Assembly: GCA_021232515.1 (NCBI GenBank)
Contig: JAJPOQ010000040.1
Location: 1 to 41,050 of the forward strand
DNA from: Lentisphaeraceae bacterium
GTDB taxonomy: Bacteria > Verrucomicrobiota > Lentisphaeria > Lentisphaerales > Lentisphaeraceae
DNA length: 41,050 nucleotides
Direction: 5' to 3'
Part shown: piece after piece, positions 3,020 through 6,569 of the stretch
How positions within the stretch are numbered: position 1 is the first letter of the stretch
Layout of the letters: each line of letters opens with the position of its first letter
The notes under the pieces: generated by a model
Database searches by the model: none
Seen by the model: the letters and a program-made list of their open reading frames with translations, nothing else
What the model was told of the DNA's origin: nothing
Program-made: the position numbers and the translations under genes

Positions 3020-3058
3020 AAAAAAAATGCTCCTGAAGGAAGGGCAACCTTCAGGAGC
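3020..3058 (-). terminator. Intrinsic terminator of small RNA A
   Basis: On the minus strand, GCTCCTGAAGG - TTGCCCTT loop - CCTTCAGGAGC is followed by ATTTTTTTT. The stem is a perfect 11 bp. Confidence 0.9.
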
Positions 3059-3167
3059 GAGTTGGAGTGAGTCTACTTAGAAGCGAAGGGAGACGCTTCT
3101 AAGCTTGTCTATATCCAGAAAGCGGTTAGAAGAAAGGGCGGTCTTCTAACCGTAGGATGCTTTCGTG
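3020..3167 (-). ncRNA. Structured small RNA, copy A (about 148 nt)
   Basis: Read on the minus strand, the RNA starts near 3167 and forms an outer stem GAAAGC/GCTTTC (3159-3164 with its mate near 3119-3124). This encloses a 10-bp hairpin (3123-3132 with 3141-3150) with loop CCGCCCTT. A TGGAT-containing linker follows, then a second 10-bp hairpin with loop TCTCCCTT, then the conserved linker ACTCACTCCAACTC, and finally an 11-bp GC-rich hairpin (3029-3039 with 3048-3058) with loop TTGCCCTT followed by an A and eight T residues. The last hairpin is a textbook intrinsic terminator only on this strand, which fixes the direction. The family is not one I recognise. Rfam Acido-Lenti-1 is a motif to compare, but I cannot claim a match. 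Confidence 0.85.
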
Positions 3168-3177
3168 ATATACTATG

Positions 3178-3193
3178 AGCAGTTGTCGAACCA
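3178..3193 (-). promoter_or_regulatory. Sigma-54-type -24/-12 promoter of small RNA A
   Basis: The minus strand reads TGGTTCGACAACTGCT. Compared with the sigma-54 consensus TGGCACG-N4-TTGCW, the invariant GG and GC are present at the required 12-base pitch. The predicted start, about 12 bases beyond the GC, coincides with the beginning of the RNA's outer stem. The same arrangement occurs before the other two copies. Confidence 0.7.
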
Positions 3194-3301
3194 TTTGATT
3201 TTATTGTGGCATAAGTTATTTACTGTAAGTAGTTTAAAAATTCAAATTAAATTTTAGGGTCTTTTTTGGGCGCTCTTATATTGCCTGAAGTGTGCACTGT
3301 T

Positions 3302-3327
3302 AGTCACTAGTGTGACTTTAGTGACAC
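3302..3327 (-). promoter_or_regulatory. Candidate activator site upstream of small RNA A
   Basis: Three GTCAC/GTGAC half-sites lie here, including the inverted pair AGTCAC-TAGT-GTGACT (3302-3317) and GTGACAC at 3321-3327. They sit about 135-160 bases upstream of the predicted start, a usual distance for sigma-54 enhancer-binding proteins. The same half-site recurs at a similar distance before copies B and C. Confidence 0.5.
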
Positions 3328-3362
3328 ATATGTTTACTTTGAAGAGTTCGTCGAATTTGGGC

Positions 3363-3402
3363 AAAAAAAAAAGTCCTTGGAAGAAGGGCAGCTTCCAAGG
3401 AC
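3363..3402 (-). terminator. Intrinsic terminator of small RNA B
   Basis: An 11-bp perfect stem (3373-3383 with 3392-3402) and an 8-base loop CTGCCCTT are followed on the minus strand by ten T residues (3372-3363). Confidence 0.9.
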
Positions 3403-3520
3403 GAGGGTTGGAGTGAGTCGGATAAAAAACAAAGGGAGGTGTTTTTTATCGTTATCTATATCCATAGAAGGCATTGGTTAACAGAAAGGGCAGTCCATCA
3501 ACCGTATGTTACCTTCTATA
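3363..3520 (-). ncRNA. Structured small RNA, copy B (about 158 nt)
   Basis: This is the most diverged copy. Its outer stem is ATAGAAGG/CCTTCTAT (3464-3471 with 3512-3519). The inner 10-bp hairpin (3476-3485 with 3494-3503) has three A-C clashes when read on the plus strand, but all three become G-U pairs on the minus strand. This is independent evidence that the RNA is made from the minus strand. The second hairpin is GATAAAAAACA with its complement (3421-3431/3440-3450) and loop CCTCCCTT. The terminator stem, GTCCTTGGAAG/CTTCCAAGGAC, is fully different from copy A yet perfectly paired. Confidence 0.87.
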
Positions 3521-3530
3521 TATCTAAATT

Positions 3531-3546
3531 AGCAGTTCCCATACCT
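3531..3546 (-). promoter_or_regulatory. Sigma-54-type -24/-12 promoter of small RNA B
   Basis: The minus strand reads AGGTATGGGAACTGCT, with GG and GC at the sigma-54 pitch and the same ACTGCT block as in the other two copies. A sigma-70-like TTGACT-N17-TAATTT overlaps it, but only in this copy. Confidence 0.65.
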
Positions 3547-3644
3547 AAAGTCAAGAGTTAAACTTCAAATCTTTAAGTTAAATGAAGTTACAAAATAAAG
3601 TTGAGGTATAGGCGGAGTTGTTATGTCTTTTCTTTGAGACTTTT

Positions 3645-3675
3645 ATGTCACGTTATTCTTTGGGGAGTGTGACAT
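3645..3675 (-). promoter_or_regulatory. Candidate activator site upstream of small RNA B
   Basis: A perfect 7-bp inverted repeat, ATGTCAC (3645-3651) and GTGACAT (3669-3675), lies about 125-155 bases upstream of the predicted start of copy B. It shares the GTCAC half-site with the region upstream of copy A. Confidence 0.5.
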
Positions 3676-3684
3676 GGATTGTCC

Positions 3685-3722
3685 AAAAAAAAGCTCCTGA
3701 AGGAAGGGCAACCTTCAGGAGC
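3685..3722 (-). terminator. Intrinsic terminator of small RNA C
   Basis: An 11-bp stem (3693-3703 with 3712-3722) identical to that of copy A is followed on the minus strand by eight T residues. Confidence 0.9.
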
Positions 3723-3838
3723 GAGTTGGAGTGAGTGTAAATAAGTGAAAGGGAAACACTTATTTATCTCTTTCAATCCAGAAAGCTAATTAGTGGAAAG
3801 GGCGGTCCACTAATTGTATGTTGCTTTCTTTATTTGTA
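3685..3838 (-). ncRNA. Structured small RNA, copy C (about 154 nt)
   Basis: It has the same layout as copy A: outer stem GAAAGC/GCTTTC (3781-3786 with 3823-3828), inner hairpin AATTAGTGGA with its complement (3788-3797/3806-3815) and loop CCGCCCTT, and a second hairpin TAAATAAGTG with its complement (3738-3747/3757-3766) and loop TTTCCCTTT. The linker and terminator hairpin are identical to copy A. Both inner stems differ from copies A and B on both arms. The 5' leader before the outer stem is slightly longer than in A and B. Confidence 0.87.
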
Positions 3839-3848
3839 GTTATCTAAT

Positions 3849-3864
3849 AGCAGTAGATGTTCCA
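3849..3864 (-). promoter_or_regulatory. Sigma-54-type -24/-12 promoter of small RNA C
   Basis: The minus strand reads TGGAACATCTACTGCT, with GG and GC at the sigma-54 pitch and the shared ACTGCT. Confidence 0.68.
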
Positions 3865-3960
3865 TGTTTTTAAATATAGTCATATCTTATTTATAATGAG
3901 TATTTTATAAATAAAAATAAAAAATTAAGTTGGAGTGCCAGTGCTACTTTTGGTAATTGT

Positions 3961-3968
3961 GTGTCACA
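3961..3968 (-). promoter_or_regulatory. Candidate activator half-site upstream of small RNA C
   Basis: GTGTCACA lies about 125 bases upstream of the predicted start. Only one clear half-site is visible here, so this is weaker than the sites of copies A and B. Confidence 0.35.
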
Positions 3969-4002
3969 GTTAAAAACGTAAATATTCTTACCTTGTCTCA
4001 GT

Positions 4003-4698
4003 TTATTTCTCTTGAGGAGGGTTTAGGGCATCGAGTAGTGAGTCAGTTGTATCTAGCAATATTTGAACTTTCTTGTTTTCTTTACCTCTTTTAATCAATG
4101 AAAGCCTAATTTTTAGAGATTCATCAATTTCATTATAAGGGTAGGGGCCATCTTTGAGGAAAACATTGTTCTTGTCTATGTAAATAAGAGTGTACTCTCC
4201 TTTGTCATTTACTTCATAGTCACCAAGTTTGACAGAATTGTGGTCGATAGGGTTTTTGAGGCTAACTTCGGTAAGAGGCTTTTTAGAGCGAGGTGTTACA
4301 GTTGCACCTGCAGAAGACGCTACGAAGTCGGCGATTTTTTTTACGTCGCGTACAGAGGTTCTAGCGAGTTCATCGAACTTTTCATCAAAGTCACCGAGGT
4401 TTTCTTCAGTCGTTTTGGTATTTTGCTTAATAGCTAAATTTAGCGCTTCTTTAACCTGCTCAGGCTCTACGTCCCATGGCTCAAGTTCATCTGTTGGTCG
4501 CTTTTTAGTTTTAACTATATCTTCAAGTTTTTTGGGTGAAGTTGCTTCACTTTGAGACTGTGAAGAACTTGTCTCACTTGTGCTTGGATTCTTTGATTCT
4601 GGAGGAGCATTTAGGAGCCAGTAAAGTAACCCGGCTGTCAGCAAAACAGCATGGATCGTAATACTGGCAATGACAAGTTTCTTCTTATAACTGAACAC
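4003..4698 (-). CDS. Hypothetical single-pass membrane protein
   Basis: The product is 231 residues, with an N-terminal membrane anchor (about residues 8-28, 'LVIASITIHAVLLTAGLLYW'). A Ser/Thr/Glu-rich low-complexity stretch (about 33-60) is followed by a soluble, presumably periplasmic, part with an 'LGDYEVNDKGEYTLIYIDKN' segment. The GTG start is preceded by GGAG at a normal distance. It lies 57 bases downstream of the flagellin on the same strand and is probably co-transcribed. The short anchor plus extended linker recalls TonB-like or secretion accessory proteins, but no family is recognised. Confidence 0.6.
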   Translation of the reverse strand: MFSYKKKLVIASITIHAVLLTAGLLYWLLNAPPESKNPSTSETSSSQSQSEATSPKKLEDIVKTKKRPTDELEPWDVEPEQVKEALNLAIKQNTKTTEENLGDFDEKFDELARTSVRDVKKIADFVASSAGATVTPRSKKPLTEVSLKNPIDHNSVKLGDYEVNDKGEYTLIYIDKNNVFLKDGPYPYNEIDESLKIRLSLIKRGKENKKVQILLDTTDSLLDALNPPQEK

Positions 4699-4755: not shown

Positions 4756-5481
4756 TTAACTTAGGAGGGCAGAGACCGTTGAGCTTTCAAGGTTTGCCGC
4801 TTGTGCAGACATGGCGGTTGAAACGTTTGATAAAATAGTGTCGCTACTTAGTTGGCTAAAGACCTGAGCTATGTCAGCATCAGTCATGCGGCTACCAGCA
4901 TCTAGTAGGTTGGCTTCTTCTTCAAGATTGGCGCGAAACTGTTGCTCGAGTATACCTTGTTCAGCACCGAGAGTAGCTTGTTTTTGTGAAAGCATATCTA
5001 TGGCATCCTTGGCAACATCTCCAGCGTTTTCGATTCCGGCTTGGGTTGTTAAGTCTATTTCTTCAAAAGAACTAACCATGTCAGAAAAGTCTGAATCATC
5101 TAAAAGTTTATTGCCGTTAAAGCTAGCGTTTTCCATGTTGGAACGCAGATGTTTAGTGAGCTCGTTAGCTTCTATTTGAATAGCTTCACGGTCTTGTGCA
5201 GAGAGCATTCCGCTATTTGCTTTGACTGAAAGTTCACTTAAGCGGCCTACCGTGTCGTGGCTACTTTGAACAAATGCAGATCGAGTTTGACTCATACTTA
5301 TTTCGTTGACGACATTGCTATTTCTAGCCGAAGCAAACGAGGCATTATTGAGTAGTTTTTGACCTATTGCAAGAACTGCAGGGCTGGTGAAACTAGGGCT
5401 CTTTTTCCCAGAAGAAATCTGTTGAAAACCAACTTCAATTCTTTCAGTAGGAGTTAGTGGACTGCCAATTGCACCGATCAT
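4756..5481 (-). CDS. Short flagellin-like protein
   Basis: The product is 241 residues with both conserved flagellin ends and almost no variable centre. The N-terminal D0/D1-like part has 'QISSGKK' and 'IEANELTKHLRSNMENASFNG', matching the family pattern in which a coiled coil is followed by 'FNG..LL'. The C-terminal part has 'RMTDADIAQVFSQLS' and 'SAQAN', the usual flagellin end. It would polymerise into the filament after export, with no cleaved signal. No other flagellar structural gene is in the window. Its neighbours are a membrane hypothetical downstream and, beyond that, the small RNA array on the same strand. Confidence 0.8.
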   Translation of the reverse strand: MIGAIGSPLTPTERIEVGFQQISSGKKSPSFTSPAVLAIGQKLLNNASFASARNSNVVNEISMSQTRSAFVQSSHDTVGRLSELSVKANSGMLSAQDREAIQIEANELTKHLRSNMENASFNGNKLLDDSDFSDMVSSFEEIDLTTQAGIENAGDVAKDAIDMLSQKQATLGAEQGILEQQFRANLEEEANLLDAGSRMTDADIAQVFSQLSSDTILSNVSTAMSAQAANLESSTVSALLS

Positions 5482-5720: not shown

Positions 5721-6569
5721 GTGGAATTTTCGATTGATTATCTTTGGGTTTTATTTGGTGCTTTTAAAGTCATCATAGAACTCTTTTTGCTCAGTTCGAT
5801 CATTTACCTTGTCCTTCTATTCCTTAAAGGAACTCGTGGAGCCCCTATTCTTGCTGGCTTTACCATAATCGGCATATTCCTTACTTTGATTGCAACTTTA
5901 CTCAAACTTGAGGTTGTTGGTTGGCTTATTGGTCAGATGTGGGCTTTTGCAGCTCTACTTATTTTAATTATTTTCCAGCCAGAGATACGGCGTGCTTTTG
6001 CAGAACTCGGTGTTCGCAACACGATGTTGTTGAAGTCTAAGCAGAAAGAAAAAGAAAATATTCAGATATTAATTGATGCAATTTTCTTTTTAGCTGACCG
6101 CAAAATTGGTGCATTGATTGCAGTAGAACGTGAAATAGGTATGCGCTTTTTAGCTGACTCTGGAGTTTTTGTTGGTGCCCAGATGAGTAAAGAACTATTG
6201 ACGACATTCTTTTACCCGAACACTCCCTTACATGATGGTGGAGTGATTTTGAGGCGGGGCGTGATTCACTCTGCAGGTTGCTTTTTCCCTCTCACACAAG
6301 ATATGACTTTGGCAAAATCACTCGGTACTAGACATAGAGCTGGTGTTGGAGTTACTGAAGAAACAGATTGTGTTTGTATCGTCATTTCCGAAGAAACGGG
6401 AACAGTGAGTTTAGCTTACAGAGGTCGTCTAGCGCGAGGTCTAAATAGAGACAGAATAGAGCGTCACCTCCACAACTTATTGGTTAAAGGCAAATCAAGC
6501 GGCTTGGCAGGAAATGTCGAGAAGATCAAGCAAGCTATTTCCGAAGGAGACGAAGGTGAGTCTATTTAA
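5721..6569 (+). CDS. cdaA: Diadenylate cyclase CdaA (c-di-AMP synthase)
   Basis: This membrane enzyme joins two ATP into cyclic di-AMP. Its 282 residues have three hydrophobic segments (about 10-35, 42-62, 70-86) and then a DAC domain. The catalytic motifs are visible: 'LHDGG' at 170-174, where most family members have DGA, and 'GTRHRA' at 202-207. The GTG start is chosen because TGA stands in frame three codons upstream and the next ATG is out of frame. It is first in a run with a YbbR protein, overlapping by 14 bases, which is the standard cdaA-cdaR pairing. Confidence 0.93.
   Translation: MEFSIDYLWVLFGAFKVIIELFLLSSIIYLVLLFLKGTRGAPILAGFTIIGIFLTLIATLLKLEVVGWLIGQMWAFAALLILIIFQPEIRRAFAELGVRNTMLLKSKQKEKENIQILIDAIFFLADRKIGALIAVEREIGMRFLADSGVFVGAQMSKELLTTFFYPNTPLHDGGVILRRGVIHSAGCFFPLTQDMTLAKSLGTRHRAGVGVTEETDCVCIVISEETGTVSLAYRGRLARGLNRDRIERHLHNLLVKGKSSGLAGNVEKIKQAISEGDEGESI

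What the first reader, a model, noticed from the sequence alone, without database searches (positions are those of the whole stretch)
3020..3838. Three tandem copies of an apparently undescribed structured small RNA
Each of the three units has the same four-part layout: an outer stem, an inner hairpin, a middle hairpin and a terminator hairpin. Loops and linkers are conserved, while stem sequences are replaced on both arms between copies. The strand is settled twice over. The poly-T tracts follow the GC-rich hairpins only on the minus strand, and the three mismatches in the inner stem of copy B become G-U pairs only there. I do not recognise the family; Rfam Acido-Lenti-1 is a motif to exclude.
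Basis: partly seen in the sequence, partly recalled or inferred. Interest (0 to 1): 0.93.

Follow-up and report, generated by a model that had tools for sequence, protein, structure and literature searches.

The report
Triple-loop small RNAs, three in tandem
A bacterium that likely belongs to the Lentisphaerales carries, side by side, three copies of a predicted small RNA absent from the Rfam catalogue, whose three hairpins all show the same CCCUU in their loops; the loops would likely grip the ribosome-binding sites of messenger RNAs and are predicted to block their translation.

Summary
Three units (window 3828-3685, 3516-3363, 3164-3020, minus strand) each fold into a 5' double-stem hairpin, a middle hairpin and a terminator hairpin with T-tract (folding z -6.5 to -8.1). 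A sister species has five copies: four in the same gene neighbourhood, one of them decayed, and one elsewhere. Across seven intact copies 96.9% of stem cells pair and 22 of 42 pairs changed on both sides, while loops and a linker stay fixed. No Rfam family reaches its gathering score. Only 2 of 59 relatives (own included) carry it; 387 phylum genomes added none. AAGGG, the loops' complement, lies in the ribosome-binding zone of 29 of 522 sampled genes against 6 of 522 further upstream. I infer a multi-seed antisense RNA that blocks translation initiation, convergent with rhizobial NfeR1/alpha-r14 and Listeria LhrC, in a lineage without detectable Hfq. Against this: the commoner GCCCUU loop matches those zones no better than its own permutations do, the enrichment is not significant in the sister alone, and there are no expression or target data.

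The parts
3685..3828 (-). sRNA unit A, 144 nt, 5' end placed at 3828 (inferred)
   Evidence: fold z -7.32; model hit 153.9 bits
3781..3828 (-). unit A hairpin 1: outer stem 3828-3823/3786-3781, inner stem 3815-3806/3797-3788, loop CCGCCCUU 3805-3798
3738..3766 (-). unit A hairpin 2, 10 bp, loop UUUCCCUUU 3756-3748
3725..3736 (-). unit A linker ACUCACUCCAAC; its first 11 letters are invariant in the 7 intact copies
3685..3722 (-). unit A hairpin 3, intrinsic terminator, loop UUGCCCUU 3711-3704, T8 3692-3685
3363..3516 (-). sRNA unit B, 154 nt, 5' end placed at 3516 (inferred)
   Evidence: fold z -6.53; model hit 141 bits
3467..3516 (-). unit B hairpin 1, loop CUGCCCUU 3493-3486, three G.U pairs in the inner stem
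3421..3450 (-). unit B hairpin 2, loop CCUCCCUU 3439-3432
3407..3418 (-). unit B linker ACUCACUCCAAC
3363..3402 (-). unit B hairpin 3, intrinsic terminator, loop CUGCCCUU 3391-3384, T10 3372-3363
3020..3164 (-). sRNA unit C, 145 nt, 5' end placed at 3164 (inferred)
   Evidence: fold z -8.13; model hit 166 bits
3118..3164 (-). unit C hairpin 1, loop CCGCCCUU 3141-3134
3075..3104 (-). unit C hairpin 2, loop UCUCCCUU 3093-3086
3061..3072 (-). unit C linker ACUCACUCCAAC
3020..3058 (-). unit C hairpin 3, intrinsic terminator, loop UUGCCCUU 3047-3040, A then T8 3027-3020
3829..3852 (-). possible promoter of unit A: TGCT at 3852-3849, 24 nt upstream
   Evidence: the consensus scan did not flag it
3517..3554 (-). 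possible promoter of unit B: TTGACT 3554-3549, 17 nt, TAATTT 3531-3526; TGCT 18 nt upstream
   Evidence: the consensus scan did not flag it
3165..3181 (-). possible promoter of unit C: TGCT at 3181-3178, 17 nt upstream
   Evidence: the consensus scan did not flag it

Best explanation
The array is predicted to encode three related structured small RNAs that likely act in trans as antisense RNAs, whose three CCCUU loops would pair with AAGGG-type ribosome-binding sites and block translation initiation. Shown: the predicted three-hairpin fold with compensatory stem change, fixed loops and linker, terminator-like 3' ends, conservation in a sister species, and over-representation of AAGGG in ribosome-binding zones of the own genome. 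Inferred: transcription, a promoter per unit, redundancy of the three loops and of the copies, a further seed in the linker (its CUCC is complementary to GGAG), and action without Hfq. Not known: the targets, the inducing signal and any helper protein.
For: 21 of 21 apical loops of 7 intact copies in two species fit NNKCCCUU (the decayed eighth copy left out), while 22 of 42 stem pairs changed on both arms. Identity by region: loops 0.93, 0.80, 0.88; the three hairpin stems 0.68, 0.54, 0.74; outer stem 0.87. ACUCACUCCAA is invariant in 7 of 7, even in the copy whose UGGA partner became UAAA, so pairing with UGGA does not explain it. AAGGG lies at -18..-3 of 18 of 257 ATG starts sampled in the own genome against 2 of 257 at -60..-45 (Fisher p 0.0003), and 11 against 4 of 265 in the sister (p 0.11); together 29 against 6 of 522 (p 9e-5). 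In the own genome it is the commonest of the ten permutations of its letters there, narrowly (18; AGGAG 17). Exact complements of six of the eight loop octamers lie at -22..-1 in 6 of 522 starts, expected 0.65; AAGGGA 17 of 522, expected 1.43. Three loop-2 octamers (UCUCCCUU, UUUCCCUU, CCUCCCUU) reach -7 kcal/mol in 76, 46 and 68 of 522 zones at -25..0 against 19, 16 and 19 of 522 at -60..-35. Same layout in NfeR1/alpha-r14: three hairpins with one identical anti-Shine-Dalgarno motif and stems that differ, Hfq-independent (PMC10746234, passages); and in LhrC: multicopy, three redundant CU-rich sites in a loop, a linker and the terminator loop, Hfq dispensable for lapB control (PMC4132741, passages). 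No Hfq match in 6 of 6 family genomes.
Against: The commoner loop form GCCCUU would best match AAGGGC, which is only slightly enriched at starts (4 of 522, expected 1.37). The three GCCCUU octamers tested reach -7 kcal/mol in 54, 60 and 46 of 522 start zones against 47, 33 and 31 far upstream, and for UUGCCCUU 32 of 60 permutations of itself prefer start zones as much or more. In the sister alone AAGGG enrichment is not significant (p 0.11) and AAGGG[CA] is scarcely enriched (5 against 3 of 265). No target was shown to be conserved between species. No expression data. The near-uniform loop size on 10-11-bp stems would equally suit a protein-binding hairpin. The promoter scan flagged no site on this strand in the window region. 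Gene starts in the samples are simple longest-ORF, first-ATG calls.
Confidence: 0.52

Rival explanations
1. The RNAs are a multivalent decoy for an RNA-binding protein: the nine CCCUU hairpins of the array bind and titrate a regulator that otherwise acts on mRNAs, as CsrB does to CsrA but with a different motif.
For: Near-uniform geometry (8-nt loop on a 10-11-bp stem in most hairpins), shared loop letters, multiple copies. GCCCUU is not tuned to ribosome-binding sites.
Against: No protein with such specificity is known to me; CsrA, present in both species, reads GGA (recalled) and 0 of 21 loops contain GGA. The invariant linker is not explained.
Confidence: 0.24
2. The RNAs are sponges for another small RNA, or partners of one specific mRNA that carries AAGGGC repeats, by loop-loop kissing.
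For: Short loops on rigid stems suit kissing; one sampled start (L030:1708) has two AAGGG, one of them AAGGGCAA, the exact complement of UUGCCCUU.
Against: No partner RNA was found, and none was searched for genome-wide; loop 2 varies at the letter before CCC.
Confidence: 0.1
3. The elements are cis-acting terminators, attenuators or riboswitch-like leaders, not free RNAs.
For: Each unit ends in a terminator-like hairpin.
Against: Units A and B are followed by another unit, and C by the 3' end of a gene on the opposite strand. The solo sister copy (L012, about 4184-4333) ends about 60 nt before a sulfatase-like gene (name from memory) but with a complete terminator. No shared downstream gene.
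Confidence: 0.06
4. Chance repeats or a mobile palindromic element without function.
For: Tandem copies, one decayed copy in the sister species.
Against: Covariation beyond all shuffles; retention at a syntenic place in two species whose flanking proteins are 41% and 69% identical; the 150 nt upstream of the units are only 50% alike against 47% when shuffled. No blastn match in plasmids or phages at E 1e-5 and no exact pattern match in viral contigs.
Confidence: 0.03

Closest known systems
alpha-r14 / cuckoo RNAs, founding member NfeR1 (Sinorhizobium meliloti)
   Same: Three hairpins, each with the same anti-Shine-Dalgarno motif in the unpaired part; stems differ greatly in sequence; 123 nt; Hfq-independent (PMC10746234, passages).
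   Different: Motif is CCUCCUCCC there, CCCUU here; here an outer stem round hairpin 1, an invariant linker and tandem copies; another phylum. No such family among the Rfam matches at E up to 10; whether Rfam holds a model for it was not checked.
LhrC1-5 (Listeria monocytogenes)
   Same: Five copies; [quoted passage not shown] binds the G-rich stretch upstream of the lapB start and impedes translation; Hfq dispensable for that (PMC4132741, passages).
   Different: Two stem-loops instead of three hairpins; copies almost identical there, 67-86% alike here among intact units of one array; no LhrC among the Rfam matches at E up to 10.
FsrA and suhB/mmgR (sub-threshold Rfam matches)
   Same: Small RNAs; FsrA is named in PMC4132741 among RNAs whose UCCC motif binds targets (passage).
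   Different: 16.6 and 15.6 bits against gathering scores of 80 and 41, E 1.2 and 2.6; taken as chance.
CsrB/RsmZ-type sponge RNAs (recalled)
   Same: Many hairpins with one repeated loop motif.
   Different: Loop motif there is GGA for CsrA (recalled); here CCCUU, GGA in 0 of 21 loops.
Acido-Lenti-1 motif
   Same: Occurs in Lentisphaerae (recalled from its name).
   Different: No match at gathering score or at E up to 10.

Membership tests
alpha-r14 / cuckoo RNA (NfeR1) | CCUCCUCCC motif in each of three hairpins | tested here: not met
   21 of 21 loops are NNKCCCUU
alpha-r14 / cuckoo RNA (NfeR1) | three hairpins with a common unpaired motif and divergent stems | tested here: met
LhrC | match to the LhrC family model | tested here: not met
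   no LhrC hit at gathering or at E up to 10; that Rfam holds an LhrC model is recalled
LhrC | three CU-rich sites, one in the terminator loop | tested here: met
   CCCUU in all three loops of 7 of 7 intact copies; their redundancy was not tested
Antisense sRNA that blocks translation initiation | seed complementary to ribosome-binding sites of the host | tested here: inconclusive
   AAGGG 29 against 6 of 522, UCCCUU loops well matched, GCCCUU loops not better than permutations, sister alone not significant
Antisense sRNA that blocks translation initiation | repression of a target through base pairing | not testable with these tools
   needs reporter assays with compensatory mutations
CsrB/RsmZ sponge | GGA in hairpin loops | tested here: not met
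   0 of 21 loops
Acido-Lenti-1 | match to the Rfam model | tested here: not met
   that the model is in the library is recalled
Independent sRNA gene | own terminator per unit | tested here: met
   for A, B, C; for three of the sister's four tandem copies
Independent sRNA gene | own promoter per unit | tested here: inconclusive
   TGCT 17-24 nt upstream in 7 of 7 intact copies, absent in the decayed one; the consensus scan found none on this strand in the window region, one TTGACA-17-TAATAT before a sister copy among 6 sites where 4.4 are expected
Independent sRNA gene | a discrete transcript | not testable with these tools
   no transcript data at hand

The most novel reading that the evidence does not exclude
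A new class of RNA decoy: nine CCCUU hairpins in three tandem RNAs titrate a yet unknown hairpin-binding regulator, a C-rich counterpart of the CsrB-CsrA system, in bacteria without detectable Hfq.
Probability: 0.2. Interest if true: 0.8.

Novelty: new variant of a known kind. Interest (0 to 1): 0.55.

Why it matters
I saw no paper on a trans-acting small RNA of Lentisphaera or its kin: one search listed all 14 papers that hold both its terms, one search listed 12 of 1,003; both were judged from titles and abstract openings only, so this is a weak negative. If the reading is right, the three-hairpin, one-motif design arose independently in rhizobia and here, with LhrC as a related solution, and works in a lineage without detectable Hfq. 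The loop, the linker and the reporter motifs are defined closely enough to be tested directly.

Tried and rejected
Akkermansiaceae hit L040 of the collection scan: no model match, lies inside a coding frame; chance. Weak model hits: five in G003, G004, G005 (two) and G023 (E 1.27-7.81) and one in G086 (E 0.048). All six were aligned; none shows the CCCUU loops together with the linker, though L045 has CUCACUCCA and L042 has UUUCCC in one loop; all rejected. The plus-strand hit G001:C61:3470-3572 (22.7 bits) overlaps a true copy on the other strand.

CsrB-like sponge: CsrA is in both carriers and in 0 of the 3 other family genomes searched (G002 was not searched), the same split as the RNA, but no loop holds GGA. 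CsrA sits beside a FliW-like gene (name from memory), so the split may just follow flagella.

CCCTT followed by a T-tract, six family genomes: counts are near or below those of the backward control (41 against 36 in the own genome), and the list of places was capped; nothing gained beyond the known copies.

Internal helix UGGA/UCCA round hairpin 2: invariant in six copies and broken in one; not claimed. A coding reading: of eight units only four have any start-to-stop frame of 10 codons or more, with no shared one.

Dropped before counts: the decayed sister copy (L011:3198-3055) from alignments A4 and A5 and the loop counts; two spurious rows of A3. The TGCT window was chosen after seeing the sequences. 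On the second check of this report I corrected the loop count (21 of 21), the account of the terminator scan and promoter B's place, added the sister-only test, inspected the last weak hit, and lowered confidence from 0.55 to 0.52 and raised the decoy rival from 0.22 to 0.24.

Full report
What is there. The window is contig C126 of an unnamed 5.26-Mb assembly, 86.67% complete. Between a gene of unknown function with a weak TerB match below the curated cut-off (1951-2958, plus) and a small gene without a Pfam match (4003-4698, minus), itself next to a flagellin-family gene (4756-5481, minus), lie three units on the minus strand starting at 3828, 3516 and 3164. Each has an outer stem (GAAAGC/GCUUUC in A and C, GAAGG/CCUUC in B) round an inner 10-bp hairpin, a 10-11-bp middle hairpin and an 11-bp terminator hairpin followed by T8 or T10. 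The folds are more stable than all 200 shuffles each.

Homologues. A covariance model from the three copies finds exactly these three in the own genome at E up to 10 and five copies in one species of the same genus. Four of the five are in tandem between homologues of the same two flanking genes (69% and 41% identical). The fifth lies alone between a tgt-like and a sulfatase-like gene (names from memory). One of the tandem four is decayed: broken pairs, a ruined terminator hairpin and no TGCT upstream. Of 59 genomes searched, own included, only these two carry the RNA. With a seven-copy model, 16 genomes at E up to 10 gave no further acceptable match, and in 387 genomes drawn from the phylum, own included, the only other match, E 0.048, was rejected by eye. 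That draw did not list the sister among its matches, and searches of over 40 genomes use stricter filters, so distant relatives may be missed. A pattern scan of the named genome collection gave three records: two of the sister MAG and one chance match.

Structure. On seven intact copies 96.9% of 291 cells pair and 22 of 42 pairs have changes on both sides; the covariation score is 0.476 against 0.248 in shuffles, 0 of 500 as high. The number of further pair types is not above shuffles (476 of 500 reach it). Sliding partners by one column drops pairing to 56-58%. The alignment was fitted to the model, so these counts lean towards the structure. The strand is favoured by the T-tracts and by 11 G.U against 3 A.C cells. 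Two terminator-stem types, which differ at five pairs on both sides, both occur in both species, so at least two lineages of copies probably predate the species split.

The shared loop. Loop 1 is C[CU]GCCCUU in 7 of 7, loop 3 NNGCCCUU in 7 of 7, loop 2 NNUCCCUU in 5 and UUGCCCUU in 2 of 7. So 21 of 21 loops show CCCUU; in copy A and in the solo sister copy loop 2 is longer than eight. The linker ACUCACUCCAA between hairpins 2 and 3 is unchanged in seven; the decayed copy has ACUCACUCCGA.

Function. CCCUU is complementary to AAGGG. In samples of both genomes (365 kb and 400 kb, simple longest-ORF gene calls, 257 and 265 ATG starts) AAGGG is over-represented just upstream of starts: 18 against 2 (p 0.0003) and 11 against 4 (p 0.11). 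Exact complements of six of the eight loop octamers occur 6 times at 522 starts where 0.65 is expected. Three loop-2 octamers match start zones well; the GCCCUU loops only weakly, 46-60 against 31-47, and 32 of 60 permutations of UUGCCCUU do as well or better. So a general anti-Shine-Dalgarno role is supported mainly for loop 2. The linker's CUCC is complementary to GGAG, which lies in 82 of 522 such zones against 10 of 522 further upstream (36 and 5, 46 and 5), but longer linker complements are rare there (GGAGTGA in 0 of 522). The G before CCCUU in most loops points to a narrower target set, such as starts with AAGGGC (two sampled starts carry AAGGGCAA, L030:1708 and L034:15843), or to a protein. 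I commit to the antisense reading at 0.52.

Precedent. NfeR1 of Sinorhizobium, founding member of alpha-r14, has three hairpins that each carry the same anti-Shine-Dalgarno motif with stems of very different sequence, and is Hfq-independent (PMC10746234, passages). LhrC of Listeria has three redundant CU-rich sites, one of them in the terminator loop, and does not need Hfq for lapB control (PMC4132741, passages); its five copies were tested with a promoter fusion each (PMC5880928, two passages). Neither family appears among the Rfam matches. The RNA here works like these by inference; it is not filed as a member of either. Hfq was not found in 6 of 6 family genomes, with the search ringing in 5 of 14 control genomes.

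Expression. No transcript data could be reached. TGCT lies 17-24 nt upstream of all seven intact copies and not of the decayed one, chance about 0.03 per copy (window chosen after the fact). Unit B and one sister copy also have a TTGAC-type -35. The consensus promoter scan of the window region found no site on this strand.

Noticed in passing
200 nt upstream of the units: window 3829-4028, 3517-3716, 3165-3364; L011 and L012: GTCAC/GTGAC occurs 10 times in the 1600 nt upstream of eight copies (7 of 8 copies), shuffles mean 1.6, maximum 7 in 500; 9 of the 10 sit 124-166 nt upstream and may be a regulator's site. Unexplained.
   Followed up: partly
L079 1501-1758 (own genome C21) and L078 (sister): CsrA is present in both species that carry the RNA and in 0 of 3 other family genomes searched; in the own genome a FliW-like gene (name from memory) precedes it.
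   Followed up: partly
window 4756-5481: A flagellin-family gene of only 241 aa (Flagellin_N and Flagellin_C) is the second gene from the RNA array; a similar gene lies at the same place in the sister (by eye).
   Followed up: no
window 5721-6569: A CdaA-type diadenylate cyclase gene (DAC and CdaA_N) is close to the array; a similar gene lies there in the sister (by eye).
   Followed up: no
L011:3055-3198: A decayed fourth tandem copy in the sister species, 59-68% identical to the others, suggests that copies are being lost.
   Followed up: yes
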